The notes beneath the pieces were generated by a model. That model did not search any database, was not told the DNA's origin, and worked only from the letters and a program-made list of their open reading frames with translations. From Branchiostoma floridae (lineage: Eukaryota > Chordata > Leptocardii > Amphioxiformes > Branchiostomatidae), in the NCBI RefSeq assembly GCF_000003815.2, contig NC_049983.1:23971939-24035938 (forward strand): 64,000 nt of DNA, written 5' to 3'. Shown here piece after piece: positions 14,615-62,334 of this stretch. The position numbers were made by a program, and so were the translations under genes. Each line of letters opens with the position of its first letter. Position 1 is the stretch's first letter.

Positions 14615-14642
14615 ATGTCTACAGATGAAGACTTCAGTCCAG
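14615..14642 (+). CDS. Exon 1 (candidate start) of the Ank-Roc-COR-CARD gene
   Basis: ATG at 14615 begins MSTDEDFSP and the exon ends with one base (G) before GTATAA. The next exon begins with two bases (AG) before its own ATG, so the split codon reads GAG and the frame is kept. The evidence is the phase match and a plausible acidic start; the exon is too short for any family signal. If wrong, the ATG at 19901 in exon 2 serves as start. Confidence 0.42.
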
Positions 14643-17600: not shown

Positions 17601-20600
17601 GATTTAGACAGTTTTCCCCAACATATGGAGACGACATCTTGTCACCGACATCTTTTTCTCAGTGTCTAGATGGAAATGTAGATGCTGCACTCCAGATGTT
17701 GTATCTATATCTAATCTGTCAAGATTGTCAAGATAACTGAATCAGACCACTGAAAGTAAAGTAAACTTTAAGGCACATTTTTTATCTTAATCTTAATCGA
17801 TTGAGATGCCCTCTACACTTAGGCACGATTTAGACAGTTTTCCCCAACATCTGCGAGACGACATCTTGTCACCGACATGTTTTTCTCAGTGTCTAGATGG
17901 AAATGTAGATGTTGCACTCCAGATGTTGGCAAAAGTTTCCCCCGACAGGTACGTAGTATTTGCCCGACAGGGCAGCAGGTGTCCCCAACAACTTCTGCAT
18001 GTGTGTAGATGTATCCCGATAGCAGGAGGGCTCATTAGCATATAAGGCAGGCTCATAAGGCTGTACAGCTCAGGGCTCGAAATAGTTTTTTCTGCATACC
18101 TGCACTGGTGCATTGGAAATTACCTGCACTAGACAACTTTTACCTGCACCACTCTGAATTTAGGAAGTATGGATTATACTTCAATTGCTCAGGAACCATT
18201 GCTATTTTTTTCTTTTATACCTTACTTGTATATAGGTGATAACATTCATTGCAGCTAATAACAATCCACATATCTCTACATCATATGACATTTATGTATA
18301 AAACCCAGTAATATTACTGGACCAGTGCAGGTTAGGTGCAGGTAGACATCAGAAATATCTGCACAGCGCCAATTTTACCTGCACTAACCTGCATATGCAA
18401 ATAGTATTTCAAGCCCTGCAGCTGTATCAGTTTGTGATACGAGCAACTACGACTGTGCAGTTGTACAACTCTTGTGCCACTCTGCTTCACTTAGTTTGTC
18501 AAGGATAAGTTGTGTTGCTCCCAAACGTACGTGGGACTCCTTGCATGATGCGAGATTGAGCGGCAAAGCGACTCGCCACCTCCGCCTTGATGAGGGCAGT
18601 GACGAGGAAAGCAGGGTTGATCATAGAGGGCCAGTGTCGTCATTCCTGATATTCTCATGTTTCAAAACATGCGAGAGAGATAAAGAGAGATTCTGACTTC
18701 TGAACATCATCTGATCTGTCATGAGCAGAAATGCTGAAAGTTCTGCCGCCATTTTGAAAATTGCGTGATATATTAATTATTATGACTGCAATCCAATTTT
18801 TTTAGGTGGTTCAGAGTCCGGTTGATTTGATTTTGATTTTGAAGACATAGTTGAACTAGGATCTCCCCCATGGCCAAATGGTTTTTTCAGCCTAACCCTT
18901 ACTGAATATCCTACAGTTCCTTACCACATCATGATGCATTTGCATGTGTCTACACCATCGTCACGAGATAGACCGACGATGTTGTTCCGATGTTGCTCTT
19001 TTAATCCATGAAAGCTCTAAATCTACAGAGCAGGACCTCACACTGCCAACCTCTCCGTCACCTGACCCCCCTACTCCCTAGTCATGCGCAGTTAGCCCTG
19101 GGCATGCCTAAAAGTATTACAGTGACTCTGTCACAACCATTATACGTGTACAGTCAAACCTGTATTAGCGGCCACCTTTGCATAGCAGCCACCTGGCCAT
19201 AGTTGCCACTTTTTGTCGGTCCCTTGGATTCGTAATAATTAAGAAATAGGCTTAACGGCCACCTGTCCAACGTGGCCACGGCCACACGATTTCTGGTCCC
19301 GTTGATACAGAAACAATATAATTGCAACCATACTGCAGCCTTATGTCACCCTGCACGAGTTTGAAATTGTAGTTTGCGAGGATTTGGAGTTTCTGACAAG
19401 GTCAATTTGGCGGTAGCAGAAGGTATGCATACCTTGAGCATTAAAGTGCAACTCTTTGTCGGTGAATTTACTGATCGAGACAATGTTACTTGGTGAGAAA
19501 GATTAGTGGGAACTGAAATCATGTGTAGCTTGCTCATGGTCCATTGATCAACATTTTCTCTATAGTGGCCACCTGTCTATAGTGGCCATATTTCTCCAGT
19601 CCCTTGAGTGGCCGCTATAGACAGGTTTGACTGTGCACCAGATCAAACCAAGCTACTGCATGGGTTTTTATGAAACATTTGCGTCTTGTGCACTAGACTT
19701 CAACTTCAGCAAGTTGATCAACTTATTTCTTCAAGTTACACATTCAATTAAATAGTGGCATCAGTAACTGTTACAGCATTTTTCAAATAAAACTAATACA
19801 TACATGTATATAATCTAGATGCGTCAAACTTTGTAAAAAAGCAAAAAAGACATCTAGACACCCTTTGAGTCATGTTGTCCATTCTGTGTTGCCCCCAGAG
19901 ATGAACCTGGACGCATTCTTCAGGGCTGTGGGGAAAGGTGATGTGCAGACTGTGAGGAGGGGACTGGAGGCTGGGGTGGACATCAACGCCAAAAGATACT
20001 TGGTAAGGGTACTGATGAAGGCAGGAGTTCTGATGCATCAATGTGATTTAACAGATGGACAGAATTGTAACAGACACAATATATTGTGGTGCAATTCTGT
20101 TTTCTATTAAGAAAAGCGTTGAGGATACATGTGTGAACTGCTGAAAAGGTATTTTTAAATACCTTTAAAAGGGTAGATAAATGAGTAATTCAAGCCAAAC
20201 TACCTAATATATTTAGCAGAGCATGACATTGTGTGTTCTGCCAGTAACCTGCAGACTTGAAATATGTGATTTGATACATTTTGAGCAACATTTCTATAAA
20301 TAAGTTTTATGTTTATACACTCAGCAGGAATTATTTCACACTTTCCCAAATATGAGTGACTTACTCGTAGTTAATCTGAAACCGCTGTCACCTTGTACTC
20401 CAGAGACCAGGGTGAAAGTGAATCATAAAAGATGTCACAATACCACTGATATTTATGTTTTAGATTTAATATTGATTATCATATAGCCAGGCAATGCAGA
20501 CCAATCAGAAGACCCCATTACATGTTGGTTATGATGCCGTAACACATGGAAAATCATTCTTTCAATCCCCAGTTATTAAACAGTAATCATAATAAACGGG

Positions 20601-53600: not shown

Positions 53601-56600
53601 GGTACAGAGGTGCATTGGACATATCAGCACAGAAAACCATCAACACTTTCTTCATAGATCACTTCAAAAATGAGTTAATTTAGGGTTTTTGGCCATTTTT
53701 GACTAAAAATGCATATTTTTTGCTCCTATGCCCTTGTATAGAAACCAAATGACCTGAAATTTGGTACAGAGGTGCATTGAACATATGCTCACAGGACCCC
53801 ATTGACACTTTCTTCACAGATCACTTCAAAAATGAGTTATTTAAGGGTTTTTGGCCATTTTTGACTAAAAATGTATATTTTTGGCTTCTATGCCCTTGTA
53901 TGTAAACCAAATGACCTGAAATTTGGTACAAAGGTAAATTGGACATATGACAACAGGACCCCATCAACATTTTCTTCATAGAGCACTTATAAAATGAGTT
54001 ATTTGGGGATTTTTAGCCATTTTTGACTAAAAAATGTATATTTATGGCTCCTATGCCCTTATATGTAAACCAAATGACCTAGAATTCGGCATGAAGGTGA
54101 GTAGGACAAGTGCCCACAGTACTTCATTTTCCCTTTGAGCAAATTATTACTTCAAATTGTTGAATTTTGGGATTTTTTCAACGATGAAGATGGATTGCAA
54201 TATGCTGTATTTGCTCCCAAGCAAATGTCGGCCTTTCTAGTGTATATGTAACTTTTCTTTACTGTAACGTTATGATAAAATGTTCAAACTCATTACCTAT
54301 CTGTGTCACATTTTGTTGCCCAGTTTAAATACGAATTTTAAAAATCCTGACAGTGCAGTACAGTAGAAGCCGTTTAATTGCACATTCCATTTGCCAGTGT
54401 ATTTCATGCAATTATCCTGGTGGAGCAACAATGCAAGTCAAGCTGAAGACTTTGGCTTAGCTTTGTTTTCTTTGGAATCCAAATTGTCTTCAGGCTGAAT
54501 TGTCTTACAACGTTTCCTATTGGACAGCTGAAATTGTCTTCATTCATAGTTAGAGTATAAAAGACCTGTTTCTTCCAGATCTCTTCAGTGTCACTGACGA
54601 AGGATAGTGGATACTATCCGAAACGTCTGACCGTTTCAAAACCATATCCAGTTGCTTGAGTAATTACTTTTTGGCGTATCTTATTACCTGGATGTCTAAC
54701 CTACATCGACGTATAGTAGAAGCCGTTTAATTGCACACCCCATTTGCCAGCGTATGTAATTATCCAGGTGGAGCAACAATGCAAAATTATCCAGCTGGAC
54801 AGGGAATTTGAGATTCTGTGCAATTAACAGAAGCCACACTGCCTTAAATACAGTACCCCAGTCTATACTGGTTTCTTTGGCTGCCAAGTAGACACCACAA
54901 ATATAAATGTGTACGCCATATTTCTAGACAAACAAACATCAAAGCTAGTTCAGCAGTGAGGAAGAAATTTCAATTTGTAAATAAAATACTTAAATTGAAG
55001 GGATTTTGCTTTGACATTTTGAAAACCAATAAGAAAAAGACTAACAGCTATTGTTCCTCCTAGTAGACAGGACTAGGATTTTTTTCAAACTGTAGGATAG
55101 GGCACTGTACAGATGTGGAAAGAACTTCCTTATTGTTGTTGCTCTGGTTTTCTGACAGTTTAATGTGAATGCACGGATGCAAACTTGGGCTTTGGCAATG
55201 TTGCTTTGAACTATATACAGAGACTTACTCTTCCTGTCTTCCCTGTATAGGACCACGACACACCCTTACACAAGGCTGCCGACGGGGGCCACACTGGGAT
55301 TTGTGAGCTTCTCATTCGTTCTGGGACTGACGTTATGGTGAAGAATAAGGTATTAGTTACTTGTTTCAAGTAGACTCTATGGACATGATATATGTCTGCT
55401 GTAATTGTACATTGAAACTGGGCTCTTAAACGTGCATGTTACGTGGGGTGTGTCTGTCCTCAAACACTGTACCTCAATTTAACGTTCTATCTGAGAGACG
55501 GCGCTAACCAAAGCTACGTAGGTACTAATTTTCCCCTGAGTGATGAGAAAAATGGTTGTGCCTTTCCCAATGGCACGGCAGGAATCTAACCCGGTATTTT
55601 TGCCTGAGCCCAGTGTACTGCCGATTACGCCACCCAATCACACACCTTTCACAAGATACATACTCTGCAGTTATTTTTACTTAGTACTTAACTTTGTTGG
55701 TTGGCAAGCTGTTTTTTTGCCTCCTTCGGTCTTAATGGACCATGGGAGATTGATTAGTAACAGCAGGATATTAAACACATCTTTCATGCTTACATTACAG
55801 GACGGGAAGGCTCCCTTAGATTATCAAAGGGATCCGGAGACTCGACGGCACTGGAAGGTAAATCAGTTCAAGCAGCAGACAACACTTTCCTTGATCCATT
55901 TCCTAGTGTACGATTAAATCATTATACTTCCTAGGTCTGGTGCACTTTGAAGAGTAGAAACAGGATTCCATTCCAAGTCACTGAGTGGATGTTTGTTGCC
56001 ATTGTTTAGAATTGATTTTAAAACTTTGTAATTATATGTTTAGTAGGAGATTTGATACTTCAGAAATGCTTTTAATGCTGTTTCAACTTTACAAATATTT
56101 CCCTCACTGGTTCTGTTAAACTTTGGAAATATTCATTATGTGGAATTGGATACTTCTAATTGTTTCTATATAATGATAACAGCCTGCCACATTATATTAT
56201 TAACAGCATTCTAACATCAACTTTGCAGCCCCGTAGCACCCGCATTGCATTGATGTCACAAAATAAGATAGCACTTCAATCATCATCATTACACTTTGAC
56301 AGCAATTTGAGATAAAAGCGGGATAGAACAATATCAATATGAAATCTTAAAATCTATTTAGAATTTTCAACATTTGGATAAACAGTGAGCTTTTTGGGCT
56401 AGAGTTCGCGTTAAAAAATCTTGTGTCGGTTTGTTTTACTATGTCGTGTTTTCAGTTATTGTTGGGTGTCGCAACAATGGCCGGGCACCAGAAAGGGCCC
56501 ATCAGTGCCAAGCAGTGAAATCTAAAAATATACAGAGACAACAATAGGGCATACTTTTATGGGGGCAATAAACTAATTTTACAATTTGACAAAGTTTACA

Positions 56601-59600
56601 AATATTTGTAAATGTAGAAGATTCACACAGTTTGACAATTATTCTAAATAAAGATTTTTTGGTACAGTTACTTTCAAAACCTTTCTAAGATATTCAAAGG
56701 AATTCAAATATTCAAAAAGTTTCTTAATTAAAAAAAAAAAAGATTATTTATTGTGGCATAGATATTCGTTCATGCAAAATAATTCAAAGTTATTACAAAT
56801 ATCACCTAAAAACCCTCATGGTGACTTGGAATGGACTCTAACAGTACTAGTGCGGGTTAGTGTATTAAACAGACTGTAACACGCTACCAGCTTATTACTC
56901 TGTGGATTGTTGCATGATGGGAAGAATTTGATGTTATCGATTATGAAACATTTGTTCTCTCAGAACCTCGACAAACAGGTGAAGCAAGAGAGGTCCTACC
57001 ACGAGTTGATGCAGAAGTCAGGCGGTGTGAAGGTCAACAGGTTTAAAGTGTTTGTGGGAGGGAAGGAGGCAACTGGGAAGTCTACTCTGAAACAAAGTCT
57101 CACAAAGGCACGTTACATGTACCTTAGTCATGACCTTTCAAATCCTGTTTAATCCTTTTCCTTCTATAATAAAGAGAAAGGTGGGAATTATTCTTAATTT
57201 TCTAAAGTGATACGCTGCACTGTTTTTTTTATTTATTTTTTATTTTTAACGAGTTTGCTCAGTGCATGGCAATTGATCACTTCTAGGCACTGAACTACAC
57301 TCACTGTGGCATCTCTTCTCCCTAAGTGAGAAACACCGAGCCTCTGCAAGCTCGACTAACTGACCCAAAAGGCAAAGCAGGGGTTACGAGGCTGCTCGCC
57401 ATTTGGCCAGAATGGTTTGATCCACTCACACCGCTCCATCGCACAGGAGGCGGGTTCTTTTACGTGCCCGGGTTATGGCTCTCCCCAAACACAGGACCTT
57501 TATTTAAAGTCCTATCCTAATCGAAGCTAGGTACTTATTTTCACCTAAGTAAAATGAGGAAAGCTGTGTAAAGTGTCTTTCCAAAGGGCACAAGATCGGT
57601 GACACGCGGCCGGATTCGAACTAGAGACCTCTCGGTCCCAAGCCAAACACACTGCCGCTGTGCTATGCGATCTCATAACTCTTATTACTGGACATAGTAT
57701 TACGTATCAGATATTATATACCAGTCATTTAACACCAATTGTATATACCAGTAATGAGACCAGCATCTTACACAATAGGGCCTGCTGTCTGCACTGATCG
57801 AAAGACTCTCCCGACGGCCAGTGAGCCAACCTCACGACCCCACACCAGGGGTGGATATTGGAACGTTCCATGTTCCAGGGGTGGGGGAGGTCAGCGTGTG
57901 GGATTTTGCTGGGCAGGCGGAGTATGCGGTGACACACAGTATGTTCATGGATGCAGAGAACACCGTCTTCGTTGTGCTGTACAACATCATGGACAATAAA
58001 AAGGCCCAAGAACAACAGGTACAAGAATATAGTCTTTACCGGGTATAAAACTGGACTCAAAATTTTGAGGATAGAAGCTTGGCACGACATGCAATGATTG
58101 CTACATAAACCGGTACAATGGTCTAATGAGCAGGTTTTGTCCCTTTGCATTCAGTAGGTCACAGTTGCAATCCCCAGCGTTGGGCTGTCACACTTTAATG
58201 GCCAATACTGCTTTCTCGGCTTAGCAATCATTTGGAAAAGATAGTAGATAAATTTAAACATCCACTACTATACCAGTGTAATGTAAATTTGCATTTGTTG
58301 TGTGGCCAACTTAGGCTAAAGAAACTGGCCCACCCTATACACCATGGACAGTGTGTGAAGGACTTGATCAACTGGCGTACATTGTGACAAACATTTGAAT
58401 GAAGCTAATGTATCACCAAATGGAATGCACAATGTGACTGTGCACTTTTACCACTTAGTGCAATCAATTATTTCTAGTTGTAAAAGGCAAAATATCTGAG
58501 AATTTAATGCACAAATATAGATGATGTCGTTTTCTTTCAGATATTGCAGCTGATTTGACATAACTTTTTAATCCTTGTTACCATAGGTTACCTGGTGGTT
58601 GTGTTTCATCAAGTCCTGCAACCCAAACCGGCAGCCTGACGTCATCCTGGTGGCCAGTAATGCGGACCAGGTGGATGCCGCCATAGGTAAGGAAAAATTT
58701 CGGAAACCTCATACCTCCATGAAATGTTTAGAGCTTTTGTGAATTCAAAGCAATTACCTAAAGACCATCATTTGAATAGATCATGCTAGTTAAGGCTTAT
58801 TTTGTAATCGATTAAACAAAAGCTCTAAAAATTTCATGTAGGTATGAGGTCTTCGAACGTTTTTTTTTCTAATTGCATTGACATCAATTGCTATAACTAT
58901 CGATATATGTCTAGAGCAGTTTCAATTTTTCATCTTTCGACCACAGATGCACTCAATCTGTTTAACCCAAATACGTTTAGTTTCTAATAATTAAATCAAA
59001 TATTCATTGGCACAACTAGGACAGGACCGAGCGGCCCTTGTTGTTCAGACGATGCAAACAGAGTTCAGAGACCATCTGCGTATCGCAGATGAAGTGATCC
59101 TGATGGACTGTAGGAAGACTCGGACACCTGAGATGGACCGACTGAAGAGTCTTCTGGTCAGGATAGGAGCAGCATTGATTCATGTGAGGCTCTATAACTT
59201 AACCAACTATGTTGCTTTTTACTGTACGTGTTTACTTGCCTTTACCATTAGATCATTTAAAAACATGACTGTTTTTATGTCAATCACACACATACTCTGT
59301 GACGTAGACCGATTACAATACTCTGTCAATGGAGGTTACCCTCCAGTCACAGAGTAACAAACTAAATAAAAGAAAGTACGCATATATCTTCAGGAAGCTT
59401 ATTTCAGAATACATGAAATTATTTCTGGATATAGCAGAACAAAAACATGCCACATTATGTGAAGACCACAGGAATCCTTAACATGTACAGCTTGCTATTC
59501 ACAAACCAACAGCATCAACGCGATATGCCCAAGCTGTGTGCAAAGGTCATGAAGCGTCTACCAAAGTGGTGCAAGAGTAAAACCAGCACTAAGTGTCCGG

Positions 59601-61330
59601 TGATGATGTGGTCTGACTACGTGAAGGAAGTCAAGGAACTTGACAGATTTGTGACCGAGGACTTTCTCAAGAAATCTTCAACATTCTTGCACCATCTGGC
59701 AGAGGTATTGAAATGCTTTATTATTGGCAATGCTTCAATGAAAGGAGGTATCATATGCAAGTGTTCTGCAACCTCATGTTTTGCACATAAATAGATTATG
59801 CTGTTAGTAGATAATGCTTATTCTTTTGTTATATCTTGGTAGTTTACATCACGTGCTACGTACATACGATTTTGTAAAAATTATGGTGTTAATTTTAGGC
59901 ATTTTATCATTTGTTATGACAAAAAACTTCAGTAAATAGATGTACAGTGGCCAGGTGTGAAATGATCATGATGCCGATTTATCTCTTAAACTTTATTTCT
60001 AACGCAGATTCTGTTCATCACTCCGGCCACTTCTGACCCCATCATTGTCCTGAAGCCCAACTGGCTTGGCACAGACGTTTTCGGTCGAGTCATGGCACCA
60101 GACTACTTTGAAAACCACCTAAACAGAACAAGTGAAGACTACGTCACCAGGGAGGAGCTGCAGCGTGTGTTCCAAGACGTTGCTGACGTGGATCTCGTGA
60201 TCACCCTGCTGCGAGAGTTCCAGCTCTGCCACACCTTTGACAAAGAGACCTACATCATCCCAGGGCTGCTGACACAAAACATGCCTGACGAGGTGTGGCA
60301 ACCACCAGCAGAATCGAAGATGGTCTACTTTGGGATGCAAATCCAGTGTGCCGACTCAACTGACATGCTCTCATCTGGATTCTTTCCCCAAGTGCAGACC
60401 CGCCTGATGAGGGAGCTGGAGAATCGCCCGTCGCTGTGGAGAGATGGCGCCAAGTGTGTGGACAGGGATGTGGAAGGTCTGATCAAACTCTCTCCGGACG
60501 GCCGTGCAGTCAACATTTGTGTCCGGAGTTTGCAGGGGGACAAGCTGAAGTGTGGAGAGATGCTGCAGCAGCTGGAGAACATCAATGCTGATGTGCTCTA
60601 CGAATGCAGCCCAGGAACAGGCACAGTAGAGAAGGTGCTCAGTTCTCGTGCACTGAAGGAACACAGGGACCAATTCTACTCCTATGGCAAGGAGGAGATC
60701 AAGCAGGCATGGGAAGAGGGAGGTACAATCGTCCATCGCACTCTCGCGATAGAAGAGTACATCTGCGACCTGCTGTGTAGGGAGGATGAGGACCCACTCG
60801 CCATTAACCGCCCAGAGCTGGTCCAGGTCTTGAGGCACGTGGAGCCAATTCTGGATCAACTGCAGGCACATGGCACTCTGACTGCTGAGGAGTGTGACGT
60901 AATCAGGGCAAAAGAAACACCCCAAGACAAGGCAAGGAAACTGTTGGACACAGTCGGAAGGAAAGGTGCACCTGCAAGTCGTGACTTCAAGGCTGTTTTG
61001 AAACAGATCATCCCGCATGCAGCTGAGATGGTCCAAGGACACGCCAGTGACCTGCTGTGTAGCGAGGATGAGGACCCGCTCATCAGGAACCGCACAAAGC
61101 TGATCCGGGACCTGACGTCACGTTACGTCCAAGAGAGAATCCTGAACCATCTCCTGCAACATCACCACTTCAGTGAGGAGGAATGCGGCATCATCAGGGC
61201 CAACAAAACAGGTCATAGCACGGCAAGGGAACTCTTGGACATTGTCGGAAGGAAGGGACAGGCTGCGCGTCAGGCATTCAAGGAAGTCTTGGAAGAAGTC
61301 AGCCCTGATACTGCCAAAATGGTGGAGTAA
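14615..61330 (+). CDS. Ankyrin-Roc-COR-CARD-CARD protein (17 exons, about 1048 aa)
   Basis: Gene-level entry; exons are listed separately. All 16 joins keep the frame, and the spliced product runs: N-terminus 1-44, eight ankyrin repeats 45-309, linker 310-328, Roc GTPase about 350-545, COR about 545-750, CARD1 about 868-950, CARD2 about 958-1048. Roc signatures seen are the P-loop GGKEATGKS (360-368), TPGVDIGTF (switch I), WDFAGQ (417-422) and SNADQVD (480-486). Roc-COR pairs are dimerising GTPase switches; ankyrin repeats bind partners; CARDs recruit caspases or adaptors. The Ank-Roc-COR core is closest in style to DAPK1, but there is no kinase domain and CARDs replace the Death domain. Role in apoptosis or innate immunity is inferred. 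Exon 1 is the least certain part; translation could instead start at the ATG at 19901. Confidence 0.85.
15180..16440. repeat. Composite dispersed repeat
   Basis: Contains repeated phrases such as CAGCAAAACTTCC / CAGCAGTGGAACTTCC and GGGCCCCCTA, two GTGTGTGT tracts (15270, 16150) and CTCCATGAAATGTGTCATGGAGGTAA near 16079-16104, which is a near-palindrome also found at 32959-32987. These link the region to the repeat at 31.9-33.0 kb. Exact boundaries are not visible. Confidence 0.45.
15780..15990 (-). pseudogene. LINE C-terminal remnant
   Basis: One minus-strand frame reads RRSIAYRAPSVWNNLLPDTH and continues to LTCLKRLLK, the usual last segment of non-LTR reverse transcriptase ORFs (arginine-tyrosine-rich strand, WN-LP, then a Lys/Leu helix). 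No catalytic part is attached. It is a short 5'-truncated or broken copy. Confidence 0.5.
16713..17416. mobile_element. TIR element of the GGGCTC-AAAT family
   Basis: Begins GGGCTCAAAATAC (16715) and ends GAATTCCGAGCCCT (about 17415), imperfect inverted ends of the same kind as the element at 18071. TGCACC/GGTGCA motifs cluster next to both ends. No coding frame was recognised. Two adjacent short copies rather than one 700-bp element are possible. Confidence 0.4.
17481..17930. repeat. 226-bp tandem duplication
   Basis: The segment 17481-17706 is repeated at 17707 to about 17930 with very few differences (for instance ATATGGAGACG versus ATCTGCGAGACG and ACATCTTT versus ACATGTTT). The near identity points to a recent duplication. 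Confidence 0.9.
18071..18418. mobile_element. MITE with CAGGGCTYGAAATA inverted ends
   Basis: The left end CAGGGCTCGAAATA (18071) pairs with TATTTCAAGCCCTG (to 18418). CAGCT lies directly on both sides (18066-18070 and 18419-18423), a possible 5-bp target duplication. The interior alternates TACCTGCAC and its complement near each end. Fragments of the same family occur at 6425-6495 and 16713-17416. Confidence 0.65.
19151..19633. mobile_element. TIR element with CAGTCAAACCTG ends
   Basis: The left end CAGTCAAACCTGTATTAGCG pairs with CGCTATAGACAGGTTTGACT on the right. Related ends occur at 35104-35945, where a TA target duplication is intact. The inner part (ATTGTAGTTTGCGAGGATTT and on) is shared with 21770-22250, so that region is a damaged relative. 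Confidence 0.75.
19899..20002 (+). CDS. Exon 2: N-terminal ankyrin cap
   Basis: Acceptor CCCCCAG (to 19898) and donor GTAAGG (20003). The 104 bp give two bases of a split codon then MNLDAFFRAVGKGDVQTVRR and LEAGVDINAKRYL, the second helix pair and loop of an ankyrin repeat. It runs directly into exon 3 (RGWTSLHAAS), which supplies the start of the next repeat. Phase 0 at the 3' end. The in-frame ATG at 19901 is an alternative start codon. Confidence 0.85.
21387..22280. repeat. Helentron-like fragment plus damaged CAGTCAAACC-type element
   Basis: Starts with a perfect 14-bp-stem palindrome, ATTTCAGCCATACC and its complement (21387-21417), then T/C-rich sequence, TCCTGTCAAATCTTCAAA and GACCTGAAATTTGG. 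The same order occurs at 36782-37060 and, in another subfamily, at 51196-54240. From about 21770 on it matches the interior of the element at 19151-19633, ending near TAGTGGCCACCTGTCTATAG. Confidence 0.55.
23512..24061. mobile_element. TIR element containing an assembly gap
   Basis: The left end GGCGTTGGTCCGCGACTTTC and following CAACGTTGACTATGTTCT pair with the right end ending GCGGAACAACGCC at 24060. Inside, GGGAGTTTGCCGTGGAA is tandemly repeated on the left and its complement recurs on the right. A run of 100 N (23634-23733) sits in the repeat, so the true length is unknown. Confidence 0.65.
23634..23733. other. Assembly gap (100 N)
   Basis: Exactly 100 N, the conventional placeholder for a gap of unknown size. 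It falls inside an inverted and tandem repeat, which probably caused the break. Confidence 0.99.
25145..25423 (-). pseudogene. LINE fragment, RT thumb region
   Basis: Minus-strand translation contains YIGYVRPVFEYACQAWHPGL and IERVQQRACKIIFGQNY, the typical post-catalytic segment of non-LTR reverse transcriptases. No catalytic motifs remain. The upstream end is cut by helentron-like sequence (about 25380-25620). Confidence 0.75.
25805..26062 (-). pseudogene. LINE fragment, C-terminal zinc-knuckle region
   Basis: Contains LCNSNLIENVVHFLVECPIY, matching the C-terminal Cys/His segment of the LINE ORF at 11755-14052. On the minus strand it lies upstream of the thumb fragment at 25145-25423, the wrong order for one element, so two insertions or a rearrangement are needed. 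Confidence 0.6.
26821..27226 (-). pseudogene. LINE C-terminal segment beyond the insertion
   Basis: Reads HFNLPTQDLVTIFTSFVRPV, LEYCAPVWHPGLT, then QRRAVRTILGRSFTNYEQAR. It continues directly from RLFFLRKLK on the other side of the TTAA element once that element and one TTAA are removed, proving it is the same LINE. Confidence 0.88.
27231..28085. mobile_element. 855-bp TTAA element (Kolobok- or piggyBac-like) with ~188-bp TIRs
   Basis: Both ends read AGGGGAACTAAACCTTTTTT inward and stay near identical for about 188 bp (roughly three differences). TTAA flanks each side (27227-27230 and 28086-28089), and removing the element restores the LINE reading frame. The interior has a 120-codon plus-strand frame (27485-27847). 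TTAA duplication occurs in piggyBac and Kolobok elements; the interior frame leans to Kolobok-type, but no transposase core is present. Confidence 0.85.
27485..27847 (+). CDS. Small acidic ORF inside the TTAA element
   Basis: 120 codons starting MMDSGDLEGVNEFEGFEEYE and containing PQNITPFNYQPRRPARS. The acidic head followed by an I-x-P-[FY]-x-[FY]-x-P motif recalls the N-terminus of proteins encoded by some metazoan TTAA elements that carry a P2X7-like cysteine-rich C-terminus. That C-terminus is absent here; the frame runs to WKTLFIR and stops inside the right arm. Probably a truncated remnant of an element-encoded protein. Confidence 0.4.
   Translation: MMDSGDLEGVNEFEGFEEYEGFDPQNITPFNYQPRRPARSADETGEGGAVGATSVAPSTHPELIEAVSVVECDGTDVETFLAGVTTNYAGRHGAPLPTFQLDELAGKKKTPIFWKTLFIR
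28090..29340 (-). pseudogene. LINE reverse transcriptase domain, broken
   Basis: Minus-strand motifs in order: KAGKASGPDQLSTRILKEF, LRPVSLTSQLAKVTESF, QQQFGCLKGRSTT, a TDFSKA block followed by an in-frame stop, SVPQGTLLGPLIF and catalytic YVDD in KYVDDLSMAE. The segment 28490-28672 links the last two blocks in one frame. A frame change near 28690 and the stop near 28660 inactivate it. Confidence 0.88.
29361..30479 (-). pseudogene. LINE AP-endonuclease domain
   Basis: A 372-codon minus-strand frame with NPRSLVNKLDEY, the catalytic Glu in VVAESWFSP, RRGGGVAVYVRNS, the catalytic Asp in LLGDFNHLD and the His in LSDHSTVLW. This is the endonuclease that nicks target DNA during LINE insertion. The frame ends at EVKKA because of a slip in an A7 run; the reverse transcriptase continues in another frame. 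Confidence 0.9.
31915..32990. repeat. Dispersed repeat with CCTCATACCTCCATGAAA end
   Basis: Begins TTCGGCGACCTCATACCTCC, the same end as the MITE at 58699-58857. It continues through AT-rich stretches with repeated TTATGCAAAT, two related blocks of GACAAAAACGCCCCTGC / GACAAAAATGCCCCTGC, an ACAC tract (32908-32945) and CCTCCATGACATTTCATGGAGG (32964-32985). It is probably a composite of old copies. Confidence 0.55.
32998..33150 (-). pseudogene. LINE endonuclease N-terminal fragment
   Basis: Minus strand reads NIHGLGSKLDDRDFISQIEG then FDFLSLSETWHTG, the first strand and catalytic-Glu segment of a LINE AP endonuclease. The rest is gone; the adjacent ACAC-containing repeat cuts it. Confidence 0.65.
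34524..34622 (+). CDS. Exon 3: ankyrin repeat, class A
   Basis: 99 bp between TATCCAG and GTAAGTAG, phase 0 at both ends. Encodes one repeat: RGWTSLHAASKYGQTEIAEL then LIQHGADLEAKDN. The intron sequence before it (TTATTGTCCCAACTGTTGTT) and the GTAAGTAGCT after it are shared with exons 5 and 6, showing common origin. It is the most diverged class A copy at codon level. Confidence 0.93.
35104..35945. mobile_element. 842-bp TIR element with TA target duplication
   Basis: CAGTCAAACCTGCCCAAGAC at the left pairs with CAGGTTTGACTG at the right; TA flanks both sides (35102-35103, 35946-35947). Several GGTGGTCGCTGAGAAGAG copies lie near both ends. No transposase frame. It sits inside the right arm of the fold-back-like repeat. 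Confidence 0.85.
36625..36723 (+). CDS. Exon 4: ankyrin repeat, class B
   Basis: 99 bp between CTGTGCAG and GTAAAACA, phase 0. Encodes DQNTPLHEGAALGQTGFCEL then LICCGADVMAQDK. Class B exons start DQ/FQ/DH and carry CELLI and GADV; this one has an unusual Cys pair (ICCGAD) and Glu-Gly where siblings have Lys-Ala. Confidence 0.93.
36782..37560. repeat. Helentron-like fragment plus CAGTCAAACC-type remnant
   Basis: Same order of blocks as 21387-22280: palindromic CAGCCATACC/GGTATGG start, TCCTATCAAATCTTCAAA, AGAGTGGGCCAATACCCC, then GTTTTAATACGTAAGTTTGACAGTGGC and TAGTGGCCACCTGTCTATAG. Two independent copies with the same composite order suggest a single compound element. Confidence 0.5.
38040..38372. 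repeat. 32-bp minisatellite, about 10 copies
   Basis: Unit GGTCGCCTGTGTGGCGGGAA followed by CCTGTGTGGTAA, with variants (GTAGCC, GTACCC, GGAGGGAA). It stops about 30 bp before the ATG of the LINE first frame, so it may be a variable 5' region of that LINE or an unrelated array into which it inserted. Confidence 0.9.
38401..39117 (+). pseudogene. LINE first-frame protein with 2A-like motif and PHD finger
   Basis: 238 codons. LLLSGDIEINPGP (about residues 86-98) matches the 2A consensus D-x-E-x-N-P-G-P, which causes the ribosome to skip one peptide bond. Right after it comes a C4HC3 zinc finger of PHD type: CPCGSC..., ICCDDCNTWYHKDC and WICCDCG. A low-complexity Ser/Thr tail follows. At about 39055 the real LINE frame shifts to LLVNCQSVRNKTAELA, the endonuclease start, so the stop at 39117 is a damage product. 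2A-like motifs are known in APE-type LINEs of amphioxus and sea urchin. Confidence 0.85.
39066..39375 (+). pseudogene. LINE endonuclease, 5' part
   Basis: In a frame different from the 2A/PHD frame: LLVNCQSVRNKTAELATVID, TYKPDCILAGTESWLNENIS (catalytic Glu in GTESW), then GGGVFQANRDDL. A frame break near 39225 separates the blocks. It is interrupted after ...LAGKKPL by insertion 1. Confidence 0.8.
39380..40405. mobile_element. Insertion 1 in the LINE: TIR element with GTAACGGG ends
   Basis: LINE endonuclease coding stops at about 39375 and resumes near 40405. The insert begins GTAACGGGGGCCGCCC and ends GGGGCACCTCCCGTTAC, an imperfect inverted pair; the subterminal AAAAAGCGTACC motif near the right end recurs at 40140. 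No coding frame or clear target duplication was seen. Confidence 0.6.
40405..40934 (+). pseudogene. LINE endonuclease, 3' part
   Basis: Frames give RPPSDPRNSLDELHSSINK, then FGDFNTPAAGIDWDA (catalytic Asp), QEPTRNGNILDLVLVNNPN, and GISDHDMVLVDV (catalytic His), ending KWDDFRSH just before insertion 2. One internal stop (TAG at 40905) and one frame break are present. Confidence 0.82.
40935..42405. mobile_element. Insertion 2 in the LINE: TIR element with AAATAAACGG ends
   Basis: The left boundary has GATCCGAGCCAAAAAATAAA (from 40967) and the right has the complement, CGTTTATTTTTGGTAGAAAG ATCC (about 42379-42402). LINE coding is absent between FRSH (40934) and NKDEEALSSQF (42477). The insert itself contains the smaller MITE at 41816-42303. 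No transposase was recognised. Confidence 0.55.
41816..42303. mobile_element. PIF/Harbinger-like MITE with TAA target duplication
   Basis: GGCCACAGCAAGTAAATTTT and on to ATGGATGACATCC at the left are repeated inverted at the right with one difference. TAA flanks both ends (41813-41815, 42304-42306). The 488-bp interior has no gene. The GGCCACA start and 3-bp duplication match the element at 7845-8212. Confidence 0.85.
42477..43320 (+). pseudogene. LINE reverse transcriptase domain, broken at the catalytic site
   Basis: Frames give LNPSKASGPDKIPPWFLK, IFKKGDRAVPSNYRPVSLT, DYQHGFRA, then LAILDFTKAFDKVPHSRL and GVLQGTVLGPLLFLFYINNL. At the catalytic box the sequence reads VRLFAMIVCYI: one base is missing in what should be F-A-D-D, so the aspartates are lost. 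Another break lies near 42950. Confidence 0.88.
43400..44126 (+). pseudogene. LINE C-terminal segment
   Basis: Reads LVRPNLEYAATVWDPYTKKD, KLERVQNQAARFCTNNYNRD, RRKMSRLCMMYKMTNKLVDV and ends SLDSFKERLQIDVQKLGV with a stop at 44124-44126. This 175-codon tail is intact and typical of CR1/L2-type ORF2. Confidence 0.85.
44219..44720 (-). pseudogene. Older LINE endonuclease fragment (minus strand)
   Basis: Minus strand reads PRILQNLSNARSLVNKIDEF, then ETWFTP, FSKCQPDKCGGGVAVYTKA and ECVWVHLRPHWLPREVSSI. It resembles the endonuclease at 29361-30479 (NPRSLVNK, GGGVAVYVR, ECIWVSVRP), so it is the same LINE group. It stops at 44219 where the plus-strand LINE tail begins. Confidence 0.8.
45398..45496 (+). 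CDS. Exon 5: ankyrin repeat, class A
   Basis: 99 bp between TATCCAG and GTAAGTAG, phase 0. Encodes HNQTSLHVASEYGQTEVAEL then LIKNGANLEARDR. Nearly identical to exon 6, including about 30 bp of intron before and 70 bp after, so one is a recent duplicate of the other. Confidence 0.95.
45497..46395 (+). other. Intron 5
   Basis: No gene. After the shared post-exon segment, 45930-45985 matches 36215-36290 (GTGGATGTCATCC, CAAGTCAGT) and 46205-46275 matches 21295-21360 (ACTTTTGATATGATCTC versus TCTTTTAAATGATCTC, AAGTGATAA), traces of the duplicated ankyrin blocks. Confidence 0.5.
46396..46494 (+). CDS. Exon 6: ankyrin repeat, class A
   Basis: 99 bp between TATCCAG and GTAAGTAG, phase 0. Encodes FDRTSLHVASKYGQTEVAEL then LIKNGADLEARDE. 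Differs from exon 5 at only a few codons. Confidence 0.95.
46641..47355. mobile_element. TIR element with TTCGAACACCTCCGTC ends
   Basis: TTCGAACACCTCCGTCAAAA (46653) is mirrored by TTTTTGACGGAGGTGTTCGA (to about 47349). The 0.7-kb interior has no recognisable frame. Target duplication is not clear. Confidence 0.7.
47570..48222. mobile_element. Possible TIR element with ATAATACCGGCCG ends
   Basis: GCAATAATACCGGCCG near 47571 and CGGCCGGTATTATGCC near 48213 form an inverted pair; a second CGGCCGGTATAAG sits 18 bp inside the right end. The interior is unremarkable. Support rests on the ends alone. Confidence 0.45.
48322..48420 (+). CDS. Exon 7: ankyrin repeat, class B
   Basis: 99 bp between CAATACAG and GTGACTTA, phase 0. 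Encodes DQSSPLHKAAAGGHTGTCEL then LIRSGADVTTKDK. The intron before it carries TGGGCATTGGTGATGTTATG, a phrase repeated before or after other class B copies. Confidence 0.95.
48475..48558 (+). pseudogene. Dead ankyrin exon (class B) with 17-bp deletion
   Basis: After an AG at 48473-48474 comes YQSSPLHLTAAGGHTD, matching class B, but 17 bp covering the CELLI part are missing compared with exons 7, 8 and 10. The frame shifts and meets TGA at once. The 3' end reads AAGGATGCAATAA, so the GT donor is also lost. Only 54 bp separate it from exon 7. It would be skipped in splicing. Confidence 0.8.
48970..49071 (+). CDS. Exon 8: ankyrin repeat, class B
   Basis: 102 bp between CTGTACAG and GTGAATAC, phase 0. 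Encodes FQSTPLHKAAAGGHDGICEL then LIRSGADVNTAIDR, one codon longer than its siblings in the inter-repeat loop. Confidence 0.94.
49193..49226. other. Perfect 15-bp stem hairpin
   Basis: TTGCGTTTCGTCGCC, a CTCT loop, then GGCGACGAAACGCAA. The stem has no mismatch. It lies 120 bp after exon 8 and starts a stretch (to about 49460) with no recognised gene. Confidence 0.85.
49490..50345 (+). repeat. Tandem pair of a tRNA-like-headed repeat (~430 bp each)
   Basis: Two copies start at about 49497 and 49919. Each begins AACTTAGCTCAATCGGTAA (pol III A-box-like TAGCTCAATCGG) and GTCCCTGGTTCGAAACCG (B-box-like), then an A/T stretch with TATTTATTTATTGATATTAT and a shared tail (GCAAGGCCTTTGTCTTATGA, CATGGTAATGG, AACTCCATCAAAAACAGCG). 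It looks like a tRNA-derived SINE that was tandemly duplicated. The heads do not fold into a clean cloverleaf by eye. Confidence 0.65.
50346..50962 (+). other. Intron sequence before exon 9
   Basis: A frame ending at 50471 (DFIQKFSDNTDVESHTARH and following KSMEVFMNISKI) starts within the second SINE-like copy and continues beyond it. It looks protein-like but has no family I know. The rest is AT-rich intron. Confidence 0.3.
50963..51061 (+). CDS. Exon 9: ankyrin repeat, class B
   Basis: 99 bp between CCTGTACAG and GTAAAACA, phase 0. Encodes DQDTLLHRAAARGDTETCEL then LISLGADVMVQNK. The following intron (51120-51185, ACACAAGAGCATAGCATCAT) matches intron pieces at 48645 and 48835. Confidence 0.94.
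51196..54240 (+). mobile_element. Tandem array of three helentron-like elements with 162-bp inner repeats
   Basis: The head holds two 43-bp copies of a palindromic start (ATTGCAATCCATACATAGTA TGGGATTGCAAT). Three copies then follow head to tail, ending at 52320, 53362 and 54240. Each ends with GGATTGCAATATGCTG, a short hairpin ATTTGCT-CCT-AAGCAAAT (CCC in the third loop) and CTAG followed by T, as Helitron/helentron 3' ends do. Inside each copy are units of about 162 bp beginning GCTCCTATGCCCTTGTAT. Copies 1 and 2 have period 1042 bp; copy 3 is one unit shorter (about 878 bp). No Rep/helicase is encoded. Confidence 0.78.
54340..54830. repeat. Repeat with duplicated AGAAGCCGTTTAATTGCAC block
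   Basis: The phrase AGTAGAAGCCGTTTAATTGC with CCATTTGCCAG and GGTGGAGCAACAATGCAA occurs at 54363 and 54716. Between them is ACTGACGAAGGATAGTGGATACTATCCGAAACGTCTGACC, a type of sequence I associate with 3' ends of Penelope-like or related retroelements; that assignment is uncertain. Confidence 0.4.
55251..55349 (+). CDS. Exon 10: ankyrin repeat, class B
   Basis: 99 bp between CTGTATAG and GTATTAGT, phase 0. Encodes DHDTPLHKAADGGHTGICEL then LIRSGTDVMVKNK. The Ala of GADV is Thr here. It is the last full ankyrin repeat. Confidence 0.94.
55405..55655 (-). mobile_element. tRNA-derived SINE copy (minus strand)
   Basis: On the minus strand: TGGCGTAATCGGCAGTACAC (A-box-like), GGGTTAGATTCCTGCC (B-box-like), then GGGAAAGGCACAACC and TCACTCAGGGGAAAATTAGT. 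The middle segment is shared with the better copy at 57220-57674. Confidence 0.6.
55801..55857 (+). CDS. Exon 11: linker after the ankyrin repeats
   Basis: 57 bp between ACATTACAG and GTAAATCA, phase 0. Encodes DGKAPLDYQRDPETRRHWK, a half repeat that caps the ankyrin stack (D-x-x-P-L-D-Y in place of the T-P-L-H start). Confidence 0.82.
55858..56963 (+). other. Intron 11
   Basis: AT-rich intron of 1.1 kb. Nothing recognised except an A12 tract near 56731 and short repeats of ATTCAAA. Confidence 0.5.
56964..57107 (+). CDS. Exon 12: start of Roc GTPase with P-loop
   Basis: 144 bp after CTCTCAG. Encodes NLDKQVKQERSYHELMQKSG, then VNRFKVFVGGKEATGKSTLK and QSLTK. The P-loop GGKEATGKS binds the phosphates of GTP. 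The frame to the next exon is kept only if the exon ends at AAG (57107) with a GC donor (GCACGT) in place of GT. No in-frame GT donor is nearby. Confidence 0.88.
57108..57109 (+). promoter_or_regulatory. Non-canonical GC splice donor
   Basis: ACAAAG followed by GCACGT. Splicing here to the AG at 57777-57778 gives QSLTK-GLLSALIERL, a natural Roc continuation. GC-AG introns are a known minority class. Confirmation needs a transcript. Confidence 0.65.
57220..57674 (-). mobile_element. tRNA-derived SINE (minus strand)
   Basis: On the minus strand: GATCGCATAGCACAGCGGCA (A box TAGCACAGCGG), GGTCTCTAGTTCGAATCCGG (B box GTTCGAATCC), then TTTGGAAAGACACTTTACAC and a long unrelated body to about 57220. 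The head is clearly tRNA-like. The middle segment recurs at 55405-55655, so both belong to one SINE superfamily. Confidence 0.78.
57779..58018 (+). CDS. Exon 13: Roc GTPase switch regions
   Basis: 240 bp between CACAATAG and GTACAAGA, phase 0. Encodes GLLSALIERLSRRPVSQPHD, then PTPGVDIGTFHVPGVGE, VWDFAGQAEYAVTHSMFMD and NTVFVVLYNIMDN. TPGVDIGTF is switch I and DFAGQ is the G3/switch II motif characteristic of Roc domains. Confidence 0.94.
58019..58586 (+). other. Intron 13
   Basis: No gene or repeat recognised in this 568-bp intron. It begins GTACAAGA and ends TACCATAG. Confidence 0.6.
58587..58686 (+). CDS. Exon 14: Roc GTPase G4 region
   Basis: 100 bp between CCATAG and GTAAGGAA; ends with one base of a split codon. 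Encodes VTWWLCFIKSCNPNRQPDVI then LVASNADQVDAAI. SNADQVD is in the place of the guanine-specificity motif (N/T-K/H-x-D). Confidence 0.92.
58699..58857. mobile_element. 159-bp MITE with ACCTCATACCTCCATG ends
   Basis: Left end TTCGGAAACCTCATACCTCC through GCTTTTGT pairs with the right end ending GGTATGAGGTCTTCGAA, with a few differences. The same end begins the repeat at 31915. It sits 12 bp after the exon 14 donor. Confidence 0.8.
59020..59183 (+). CDS. Exon 15: Roc-COR junction
   Basis: 164 bp between ACAACTAG and GTGAGGCT. Two bases complete the Gly codon from exon 14, then QDRAALVVQTMQTEFRDHLR, ILMDCRKTRTPEMDRLKSLL and VRIGAALIH. The DCRKT segment is in the position of the G5 strand of Roc domains. 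Confidence 0.92.
59184..59512 (+). other. Intron 15
   Basis: 329 bp with no recognised element. An earlier AG at 59489-59490 would put the next exon out of frame with a stop after 29 codons; the AG at 59511-59512 is the working acceptor. Confidence 0.6.
59513..59704 (+). CDS. Exon 16: N-terminal COR domain
   Basis: 192 bp between ACCAACAG and GTATTGAA, phase 0. Encodes HQRDMPKLCAKVMKRLPKWC, VMMWSDYVKEVKELDRF and SSTFLHHLAE. The LPKWC...W-x-x-Y...LH-x-L order fits the start of a COR domain. Confidence 0.88.
59705..60007 (+). other. Intron 16
   Basis: 303-bp AT-rich intron with no recognised element; ends TCTAACGCAG. Confidence 0.6.
60008..61330 (+). CDS. Exon 17: COR C-terminus and tandem CARDs
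   Basis: 1323 bp from the acceptor ACGCAG to TAA at 61328-61330. COR part: IIVLKPNWLGTDVFGRVMAP, YVTREELQRVF, LVITLLREFQLCHTFDKE and YIIPGLL. A charged linker (to about residue 865) is followed by CARD1 with VEPILDQLQAHGTLTAEECD, VIRAKETPQDKARKLLDTV and GRKGAPASRDFKAVL. CARD2 has LLQHHHFSEEECGIIRANKT, TARELLDIVGRKGQAARQAF and KEVLEEV. The DLLCxEDEDPL phrase precedes both CARDs, showing they arose by duplication. CARDs form death-fold contacts with caspases or adaptors. Both keep the usual I-x-A-x-x-T...A-x-x-LLD core. Confidence 0.95.
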   Translation: MLFITPATSDPIIVLKPNWLGTDVFGRVMAPDYFENHLNRTSEDYVTREELQRVFQDVADVDLVITLLREFQLCHTFDKETYIIPGLLTQNMPDEVWQPPAESKMVYFGMQIQCADSTDMLSSGFFPQVQTRLMRELENRPSLWRDGAKCVDRDVEGLIKLSPDGRAVNICVRSLQGDKLKCGEMLQQLENINADVLYECSPGTGTVEKVLSSRALKEHRDQFYSYGKEEIKQAWEEGGTIVHRTLAIEEYICDLLCREDEDPLAINRPELVQVLRHVEPILDQLQAHGTLTAEECDVIRAKETPQDKARKLLDTVGRKGAPASRDFKAVLKQIIPHAAEMVQGHASDLLCSEDEDPLIRNRTKLIRDLTSRYVQERILNHLLQHHHFSEEECGIIRANKTGHSTARELLDIVGRKGQAARQAFKEVLEEVSPDTAKMVE

Positions 61331-62217: not shown

Positions 62218-62334
62218 AAAGTACAATCGAAGTTGACCGTGTGGAGATAAGTATTCTTCTGGAAGTGTTTGGAACAGCTCCTTTTTTGTATCGGAGATGG
62301 GTGCAGTTCACAGGATTGGTGTCCTTCGAACTGA

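What the first reader, a model, noticed from the sequence alone, without database searches (positions are those of the whole stretch)
14615..61330. Kinase-less DAPK1-like Roco protein with two CARDs at the C-terminus
The exons seen join in frame into Ank(8)-Roc-COR-CARD-CARD. Roc and COR motifs (GGKEATGKS, TPGVDIGTF, DFAGQ, PNWLGTDVFG) and both CARD cores are visible. From family knowledge, animal Roco proteins with ankyrin repeats are DAPK1-type and end in a Death domain. A CARD pair would tie a GTPase switch to caspase or CARD-adaptor recruitment, a design I do not know to be described in detail. It is the best candidate here for a new signalling system.
Basis: partly seen in the sequence, partly recalled or inferred. 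Interest (0 to 1): 0.88.

Follow-up and report, generated by a model that had tools for sequence, protein, structure and literature searches.

The report
Amphioxus Roco GTPase with swappable tail
This amphioxus gene makes a cell-death-kinase-like protein that has lost its kinase and ends in two caspase-recruitment domains, and it belongs to a large amphioxus family whose signalling ends have been exchanged between genes, which suggests a GTP-switched counterpart of known immune receptors.

Summary
An independent 17-exon model (14615-61330, +) gives the same 1048-aa product: 8 ankyrin exons, Roc, COR, CARD, CARD. COR-B is below Pfam's cut-off. Exon 1 is weakly supported; exon 12 needs a GC-AG splice.

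The gene is one member of a family. Of 92 homologues, 87 are Branchiostoma, and what follows COR varies: CARD pair, single CARD, CARD-caspase, CARD-kinase-caspase, GT4 glycosyltransferase, Death, or a short tail. The COR exon, followed by one or two CARDs, lies in 14 of 20 further genomic stretches read. Core and tail have different histories: the window's core is closest to a GT4-tailed protein (90.2%), its tail to a CARD-CARD protein whose core is 78% identical. One origin of GT4-bearing cores is rejected.

Best reading: a DAPK1-derived, kinase-less Roco switch with an interchangeable effector, probably an NLR-like cytosolic receptor. The immune role is inferred. CARD-bearing Roco proteins are reported in Trichoplax, so this is a new variant of a known kind.

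The parts
14615..14642 (+). exon 1 (28 bp), putative start MSTDEDFSP|; weakly supported
   Evidence: open frame, CCAG|GTATAA donor, phase fits exon 2; some relatives have comparable short leaders, others start in exon 2
19899..20002 (+). exon 2, ankyrin N-cap MNLDAFFRAVGKGDVQTVRRGL...; alternative start codon at 19901
   Evidence: 28 relatives carry GDVQTV within their first 200 residues
34524..34622 (+). exon 3, ankyrin repeat, 99 bp, phase 0
   Evidence: related with flanks to exons 5 and 6
36625..36723 (+). exon 4, ankyrin repeat, 99 bp
45398..45496 (+). exon 5, ankyrin repeat, 99 bp
   Evidence: 86% to exon 6 over 214 columns, intron flanks included
46396..46494 (+). exon 6, ankyrin repeat, 99 bp
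48322..48420 (+). exon 7, ankyrin repeat, 99 bp
48970..49071 (+). exon 8, ankyrin repeat, 102 bp
50963..51061 (+). exon 9, ankyrin repeat, 99 bp
55251..55349 (+). exon 10, ankyrin repeat, 99 bp
55801..55857 (+). exon 11, DGKAPLDYQRDPETRRHWK linker
   Evidence: 19 of 19 residues shared with P0016
56964..57107 (+). exon 12, start of Roc with P-loop GGKEATGKS; GC donor
57779..58018 (+). exon 13, Roc with TPGVDIGTF and DFAGQ
   Evidence: (Roc 35.4 bits on the containing frame)
58587..58686 (+). exon 14, Roc, includes ASNADQ
59020..59183 (+). exon 15, end of Roc / start of COR
59513..59704 (+). exon 16, COR-A
60008..61330 (+). exon 17: end of COR-A, COR-B, hinge, CARD1, CARD2, stop
60698..60769 (+). 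hinge after COR-B (SYGKEEIKQAW...DLL); similar stretches follow COR in the relatives of other tail types that were printed
60770..61015 (+). CARD1
   Evidence: fold model; PDB matches
61076..61321 (+). CARD2
   Evidence: fold model; PDB matches
60782..60795 (+). repeat GAGGATGAGGACCC (encodes EDEDP) before CARD1; homology to L009 and L011 ends at 60796
   Evidence: exact copies in 7 of 28 loci, not in L009 or L011
61064..61077 (+). second copy of the same repeat, before CARD2
   Evidence: 0 of 100 shuffles had two matches
1626..2903 (+). open frame with GT4-conflict glycosyltransferase (likely exon from about 1665); effector-type exon, owner gene not resolved
   Evidence: (E 4.6e-69, residues 22-408)

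Best explanation
The gene encodes a cytosolic, kinase-less, DAPK1-derived Roco protein. Shown: 8 ankyrin repeats, a Roc GTPase-like domain with P-loop and DFAGQ motifs, COR, a short hinge and two CARDs; membership of an expanded Branchiostoma family in which core and C-terminal domain have different histories, so that the domain after the hinge has been exchanged between genes; purifying selection on core and tail. Suggested, on two paralogues: a break at a repeated EDEDP-encoding sequence. Inferred: the ankyrin array is the sensing surface, diversified by exon duplication; ligand binding changes the Roc nucleotide state and the Roc-COR dimer, as proposed for other Roco proteins; this releases or clusters the CARD pair, which nucleates a CARD assembly that recruits a CARD-bearing caspase, kinase or adaptor, possibly the CARD-caspase paralogues of the same family. 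It would then work like an NLR, with a GTPase in place of the NACHT ATPase, and the exchangeable tail would decide the response.
For: Domains. Two CARD folds in the model (10-residue pLDDT means 79-89 and 75-89 over the two cores), with TM by target length 0.81-0.85 to NLRC4 and CARD8 CARD filaments and the Apaf-1 CARD 1cy5, at Foldseek E of 0.005-0.08. A relative with the same Roc-COR-CARD-CARD plan (P0010, mean pLDDT 78.7, pTM 0.50) matches LRRK2, LRRK1 and C. tepidum Roco (best E 2.9e-18; TM 0.70-0.72 to the COR domain 3dpt). Family with varied tails. Genomic copies in the same genome. Different histories of core and tail: window-P0003 has core 78.0% and tail 94.7%, the most extreme of 190 pairs (mean tail-minus-core -15.6, sd 11.8), while P0016, GT4-tailed, has core 90.2%. 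dS against L009 is 0.24 in the core and 1.43 in the tail; against L020 0.45 and 0.61. DNA homology to L009 runs through introns for 3.2 kb and stops at 60796. On 44 effector-bearing cores tail type needs 20 changes (least possible 8; shuffled mean 22.2), and one clade of the nine GT4-bearing cores is rejected, p 1.2e-7. Selection.
Against: No transcript, expression, infection or biochemical data were available. The partner of the CARDs is unknown: a search with the CARD region found only members of this family (5 of 5 hits; lengths limited to about 242-770 aa). The window-exon model has low confidence in its COR part (mean pLDDT 60.9, pTM 0.30); only 6 of its PDB matches have E up to 0.001, all Roco, and the match spanning both CARDs (MDA5, 7dni) has TM 0.36 and rmsd 16.6, so how the two CARDs sit together is not known. 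COR-B is below cut-off. The G4-like motif is SNAD where the consensus of 30 aligned relatives has SHAD. Tail types are somewhat clustered on the tree (as few changes in 7 of 200 shuffles; with the short-tailed rows in, 24 changes against 43.0, 0 of 200), so exchange is frequent, not free. The break at 60796 holds for L009 and L011; homology to the other copies runs on to 60908-61032, and in L020 and L021 to the stop; the exact 14-bp repeat is in 7 of 28 loci and not in L009 or L011. The GT4 group was named after the tree was seen. Many tail labels rest on NCBI gene predictions. Gene conversion of part of the gene would give the same signal as a moved tail.
Confidence: 0.6

Rival explanations
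1. A developmental or housekeeping apoptosis regulator of DAPK1 type: the CARDs simply replace Death as a scaffold contact, and the expansion reflects tandem duplication, not immune selection.
For: Ankyrins to COR align co-linearly with fish DAPK1 (24.7%). A Death-tailed, kinase-less amphioxus protein outside the expansion (P0102) aligns at 40.5%.
Against: A large family with tails that include caspase, kinase and GT4-conflict domains, frequent exchange of tails and a neighbouring Roco-type gene with Death and FIIND-like exons fit conflict genes better than a conserved regulator.
Confidence: 0.18
2. A decoy or inhibitor: without kinase or protease of its own, the CARD pair caps or sequesters CARD assemblies, as CARD-only proteins do (recalled).
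For: This copy has only CARDs after COR, whereas paralogues carry CARD plus caspase.
Against: The CARDs are under purifying selection (dN/dS 0.28-0.40) together with the core (0.27-0.37); a decoy would not obviously need Roc-COR and eight ankyrins.
Confidence: 0.12
3. The window copy is a recombinant, poorly expressed or dying gene; the finding is real as sequence but not as a protein.
For: Very long introns that hold retrotransposon frames, a weak first exon, a degenerate ankyrin copy, a family relic upstream, and no protein seen at 97% or more identity.
Against: All 17 exons open and in phase; dN/dS well below 1; P0003, 83% identical over residues 330-1048, is an annotated gene with 3 member sequences.
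Confidence: 0.1

Closest known systems
DAPK1 (death-associated protein kinase 1), Roco group 3
   Same: Ankyrin repeats, Roc and COR in the same order, co-linear at 24.7% identity with a fish DAPK1; a death-fold domain at the C-terminus
   Different: No N-terminal kinase found; two CARDs instead of one Death domain
CARD-bearing Roco proteins of Trichoplax (Civiero et al. 2014, PMC4104024; passages read)
   Same: Roc-COR with CARD or death domains in one protein, at least 17 Roco genes in one genome
   Different: The passages list TPR, LRR and AAA partners and do not mention ankyrins, a tandem CARD tail or exchange of tails; Figure 1 itself was not available
Bacterial AP-GTPase (Roco-like) conflict systems with variable effectors (PMC8195603, section 15 and passages read)
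   Same: Roc-COR switch with an interchangeable C-terminal effector, GT4 and caspase among at least 24 kinds, several paralogues per genome
   Different: LRR, not ankyrin, sensors; prokaryotic; for animals the section names only the DAP kinase. Its Figure 6A (animal GT4 architectures) and source data were not seen and may show related proteins
Amphioxus AIG1/GIMAP GTPases with N-terminal CARD (PMC12373286, passages read)
   Same: A GTPase joined to CARD in an expanded, variable amphioxus family
   Different: AIG1 GTPase, not Roc-COR; CARD at the N-terminus; no ankyrins named in the text
Brown-algal LRR-ROCO genes, candidate immune receptors (PMC11378527; passages and section 10 read)
   Same: Expanded Roco family; repeat array cut into repeated exons
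   Different: Variation is in the LRR exons; C-termini simple, with a peptidase or DUF900 in three members each, no death-fold domains named for the algae
Animal NLRs and tandem-CARD RLRs (recalled)
   Same: Repeat sensor, nucleotide switch and CARD output (NLR); two adjacent CARDs (RLR)
   Different: Roc GTPase instead of NACHT or helicase; CARDs at the C-terminus

Membership tests
Roco family | Roc GTPase-like domain | tested here: met
   Pfam Roc 40.7 bits, cut-off 27
Roco family | COR domain directly after Roc | tested here: met
   COR-A 35.7 bits, cut-off 35.3; COR-B 18.8, below its cut-off of 27; the relative P0010 has the COR fold, TM 0.70-0.72 to 3dpt
Roco family | GTP binding and dimer cycle | not testable with these tools
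   Motifs GGKEATGKS and DFAGQ present; no biochemistry
DAPK1 group (defined as in PMC6337361, passages) | Kinase before Roc-COR | tested here: not met
   No kinase family on the product; no kinase-like exon in the window by tblastn with 92 relatives at E 1e-4
DAPK1 group (defined as in PMC6337361, passages) | No LRR; ankyrin repeats before Roc-COR (the latter recalled) | tested here: met
DAPK1 group (defined as in PMC6337361, passages) | C-terminal Death domain | tested here: not met
   CARD pair only
CARD superfamily (each C-terminal domain) | CARD profile above cut-off and CARD fold | tested here: met
   Two stretches, 106.5 bits together on exon 17; TM 0.81-0.85 to known CARDs, Foldseek E 0.005-0.08
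NLR / STAND receptors | NACHT or NB-ARC ATPase | tested here: not met
   None on the product at E 0.1; resemblance is in design only
Effector-exchanging conflict gene family | One core with several unrelated C-terminal effectors whose distribution does not follow the core tree | tested here: met
   partial clustering remains (7 of 200 shuffles as low)
Effector-exchanging conflict gene family | Role in defence | not testable with these tools
   No expression or infection data

The most novel reading that the evidence does not exclude
Amphioxus has built a GTPase-switched class of intracellular immune receptors, parallel to NLRs, on a kinase-less DAPK1 core. Ankyrin exons are duplicated to vary sensing, and effectors (CARD pair, CARD-caspase, GT4 glycosyltransferase, kinase, Death) are exchanged by recombination at a repeated hinge after COR. 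CARD-pair members such as this one would recruit the enzyme-bearing members in trans.
Probability: 0.4. Interest if true: 0.86.

Novelty: new variant of a known kind. Interest (0 to 1): 0.68.

Why it matters
The best-known animal intracellular receptors with swappable outputs, the NLRs, use ATPase switches (recalled). An animal family that couples a Roc-COR GTPase to exchangeable caspase-recruiting, protease and glycosyltransferase tails would be the animal counterpart of the bacterial AP-GTPase systems. It would give Roco biology, best known from LRRK2 in Parkinson disease, a tractable case in which the output of the switch is a death-fold assembly. It also offers a natural swap experiment: similar cores with different effectors.

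Tried and rejected
Rejected: that the CARDs come from a neighbouring gene by mis-splicing (they share one uninterrupted exon with COR). Rejected: that a kinase exon was overlooked in the window (E 1e-4). Considered and not supported: that the GT4 frame at 1626-2903 is an N-terminal part of this gene; in the 9 relatives with GT4, it lies after COR. Its owner stays unresolved, because no Roc-COR of this type was found in the 20 kb upstream and part of that stretch reads N. Tried without result: Pfam on 34 short-tailed relatives for a RHIM-like motif (RHIM is not among the 25 families shown of 49 at E up to 10); CARD-region search for other CARD partners. A whole-genome count of the COR exon and of GT4 could not be made.

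Results against my reading, told again: low confidence of the window-exon model, weak E-values of its CARD fold matches, COR-B below cut-off, weak exon 1, no transcript, tails of most relatives known only from gene predictions, partial clustering of tail types on the tree, and the hinge break seen for 2 of the copies only. Rows dropped: 10 of 92 proteins before the tree (fragments and distant hits); for one search also the 37 short-tailed rows, the fish DAPK1 and P0044, P0087. In one search one double-CARD relative (P0015) and the fragments P0036 and P0051 were not used. Three tail labels were set by hand (P0022 and P0046, P0032 by ignoring a partial CARD hit). In one search the breakpoint test (0 of 5000 shuffles) covered residues 310-860 only and includes the hinge, where P0016 has another tail type, so it partly restates that difference; I do not lean on it. 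One search used 5 of the 7 double-CARD loci.

Full report
What is there. Pfam finds 8 ankyrin stretches, Roc (40.7 bits), COR-A (35.7), COR-B (18.8, below its cut-off) and two CARDs (103.3). Exon 17 alone holds the end of COR-A, COR-B and both CARDs in one open frame.

Doubtful details. Exon 1 is 28 bp and rests on a frame and a donor only; relatives start either at the exon-2 ATG or with a comparable short leader. Exon 12 ends at GC, not GT; P0003 and P0016 cross that join without a gap. The ankyrin exons 3-10 are 99 bp (one is 102), phase 0, and several are related together with intron flanks (exon 5 to 6, 86% over 214 columns; exon 3 to 5, 80% over 186). A broken ankyrin-like copy lies near 48.5 kb. 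Frames of retrotransposon type lie upstream of the gene and inside its long introns.

Where it is. The window is C5:23971939-24035938 of a 513-Mb genome in 431 contigs. The lengths of C5 and C6 (29550017 and 28086088) equal those listed for Branchiostoma floridae proteins, so the species is B. floridae by inference.

The family. A search with residues 330-1048 gave 92 proteins (E up to 1e-3; only the 7989 candidates sharing most words were scored), 87 of them from Branchiostoma by the source names, the rest a fish DAPK1 and four unnamed. Probing the tails by BLAST and scanning 8 proteins with Pfam shows, after COR: two CARDs; one CARD; CARD then caspase (P0033, P0034, P0040, P0041); CARD, kinase, caspase (P0038); CARD and Death (P0022); two Death domains (both halves of P0002; P0039 by probe); GT4 (P0016, P0031, P0043, P0045; P0032 with a partial CARD hit); CARD and GT4 (P0008, P0026, P0029, P0030); or a short tail without a Pfam domain found. 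Of 84 core rows: short 37, CARD pair 21 (the window included), single CARD 5, GT4 5, CARD-caspase 5, CARD+GT4 4, Death 3, CARD-Death 1, CARD-kinase 1, unassigned 1, fish DAPK1 1. A profile search (120 of 125 hits listed) added two Ank-Roc amphioxus proteins with Death domains (P0101, P0102), DAPK1-type proteins of other animals and a brittle-star protein with ankyrins, Roc, a CARD and a kinase (P0118, 28.6% to the window product).

The same in DNA. To be free of gene predictions I read 20 stretches of 10 kb of the same genome: 18 around CARD hits, chosen mostly for long open frames and so biased towards this family, and 2 adjoining the window. Fourteen of the 20 hold the homologue of the COR exon 17, with most of exons 12-16 before it in order (L017 from exon 14 on; L026 without exon 14): seven with two CARDs (L009, L011, L018, L019, L020, L021, L027), four with CARD and caspase (L015, L016, L017, L023; L015 and L017 with a further CARD hit beyond the caspase), three with one CARD (L022, L024, L026). 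The other six are L010, L012 and L025 (CARD or Death-like hits without this COR exon) and L013, L014, L028 (no hit). dN/dS against five of the seven double-CARD copies is 0.27-0.37 for the core and 0.28-0.40 for the tail.

Core and tail have different histories. (a) The window's core is 90.2% identical to P0016, whose tail is GT4, but its CARD pair is 94.7% identical to that of P0003, whose core is only 78.0% identical; among 190 pairs of 20 double-CARD proteins the window-P0003 pair is the most extreme, the mean tail-minus-core difference being -15.6 and the tail the more similar part in 17 pairs. (b) Within one genome, dS to L009 is 0.24 in the core and 1.43 in the tail, while to L020 it is 0.45 and 0.61: of the five copies tested, the nearest core and the nearest tail are different genes. 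(c) DNA homology to L009 runs through introns, 57715-60796, 81.5%, and stops; the CARD part resumes some 400 bp further on in L009. L011 breaks at the same base. The other copies do not break there: homology runs to 60908-61032 in L015-L019, L022-L024, L026 and L027, and to the stop in L020 and L021. (d) That base is one past a 14-bp repeat, GAGGATGAGGACCC, at 60782-60795 and again at 61064-61077, before each CARD; 0 of 100 shuffles of the window gave two such matches. Exact copies occur in 7 of 28 loci, but not in L009 or L011, so its part in the exchange is a suggestion. (e) Elsewhere on the chromosome CARD units stand in other order (L010: a CARD2-like before a CARD1-like unit) and as a relic (L012). 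(f) On the tree of 44 effector-bearing cores the tail types need 20 changes (least possible 8) against 22.2 for shuffled labels; 7 of 200 shuffles are as low, so some clustering remains. Holding the nine GT4-bearing cores in one clade is rejected (p 1.2e-7), with the caution that I named the group after seeing a tree. With the short-tailed rows included the labels are clearly clustered (24 changes against 43.0), because the short-tailed proteins lie apart. The P0016 tail is unlikely to be a prediction error: P0031, from another assembly, has nearly the same linker and GT4 join on a different core.

Structure. The window exon was modelled with 21 relatives: mean pLDDT 60.9, pTM 0.30; poor in COR, good in both CARD cores (79-89 and 75-89 per 10-residue block). 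Foldseek matches with E up to 0.001 are six Roco chains; CARD matches follow at E 0.005-0.08, with TM by target length 0.81-0.85 for NLRC4, CARD8 and Apaf-1 (1cy5) CARDs and 0.66-0.76 for NOD1. The match spanning both CARDs (MDA5, 7dni) has TM 0.36 and rmsd 16.6, so their relative placement is not known. By sequence the nearest solved CARDs are NOD1 and BIRC2 (E 5e-6 to 7e-6). The relative P0010 (Roc-COR-CARD-CARD, pLDDT 78.7) matches LRRK2, LRRK1 and C. tepidum Roco; pTM 0.50 says little about how the CARDs sit on Roc-COR.

How it most likely works. Shown: architecture, family, discordant core and tail, constraint. From established knowledge of Roco proteins: Roc-COR cycles between nucleotide states and monomer-dimer forms (PMC6337361, passages read). 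Inferred: ankyrins sense, Roc-COR switches, clustered CARDs seed an assembly that recruits CARD-bearing enzymes, possibly family members with caspase. I put 0.6 on this class of mechanism and 0.4 on the full immune-receptor reading.

What is in print. Ten literature searches (a library of open-licence PMC papers only) showed, in their listings and the passages I opened, no description of this amphioxus family. Closest: Trichoplax Roco proteins with CARD or death domains (PMC4104024, passages; [quoted passage not shown] bacterial AP-GTPases with at least 24 effector types (PMC8195603, section 15 and passages); amphioxus AIG1 GTPases with CARD (PMC12373286, passages). Term searches within amphioxus papers found no 'ankyrin' in PMC2575513, PMC3196919 or PMC12373286, and no 'Roc' in PMC2575513 and PMC12373286 ('Roc' was not asked for in PMC3196919). 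Figures, supplements and subscription papers were not seen, so earlier mention, for instance in the figures of the Roco surveys or in Figure 6A of PMC8195603, cannot be excluded.

Verdict. A true observation, read too narrowly. The tandem-CARD Roco is an authentic member of an amphioxus family with interchangeable effectors; the family, more than the single gene, is the point of interest.

Noticed in passing
window 1626-2903 (+): Single open frame for a GT4-conflict glycosyltransferase (E 4.6e-69), the effector type that ends several paralogues; the gene that owns this exon was not found.
   Followed up: partly
L012:8512 to L013:5932 (C5, about 4-11.5 kb upstream of the window): A second Roco-type gene on the same strand: Roc-like frame (18.8 bits, below cut-off), a frame with WDFGGQ (no Pfam match), COR-A (46.5 bits), Death (33.3 bits) and FIIND (31.4 bits) exons. 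That they form one gene is inferred. FIIND is the domain of NLRP1 and CARD8 (recalled).
   Followed up: partly
L012:7529-8107 and exon-11-like frame at L012:6352: Relic of the same family: an exon-11-like piece and a frame with part of a CARD and one whole CARD, with no homologue of the Roc-COR exons found between them.
   Followed up: partly
P0033, P0034, P0040, P0041, P0038 (relatives): The caspase-like tails carry SGHG and LD[AV]C motifs and a cysteine-rich piece before the caspase part (letters); this looks closer to metacaspase or bacterial-type C14 than to classical QACRG caspases (recalled).
   Followed up: no
34 short-tailed relatives of alignment A1: Conserved C-terminal stretch with consensus VYGxGNxxINAGDGA, somewhat like RHIM or amyloid signalling motifs (recalled); Pfam gave no support.
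   Followed up: partly
window 48480-48570 (+): Degenerate ankyrin-like exon copy with a stop and frame change, between exons 7 and 8.
   Followed up: no
window 11758-14118 (-), 28064-30584 (-), 38398-39114 (+), 40494-40904 (+): Frames with reverse transcriptase, endonuclease and PHD-finger matches, typical of LINE-type retrotransposons (recalled), upstream of the gene and within its long introns.
   Followed up: no
window 62330-62760 and L011:7096-9482: Repetitive DNA just downstream of the gene, also downstream of the paralogues L011 and L009, at about 70% identity.
   Followed up: no
P0118 (Amphiura filiformis): Brittle-star protein with ankyrins, Roc, a CARD (CARD_2 38.7 bits) and a C-terminal kinase, in the order Ank-Roc-CARD-kinase as in amphioxus P0038; the design may be older than amphioxus or convergent.
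   Followed up: partly
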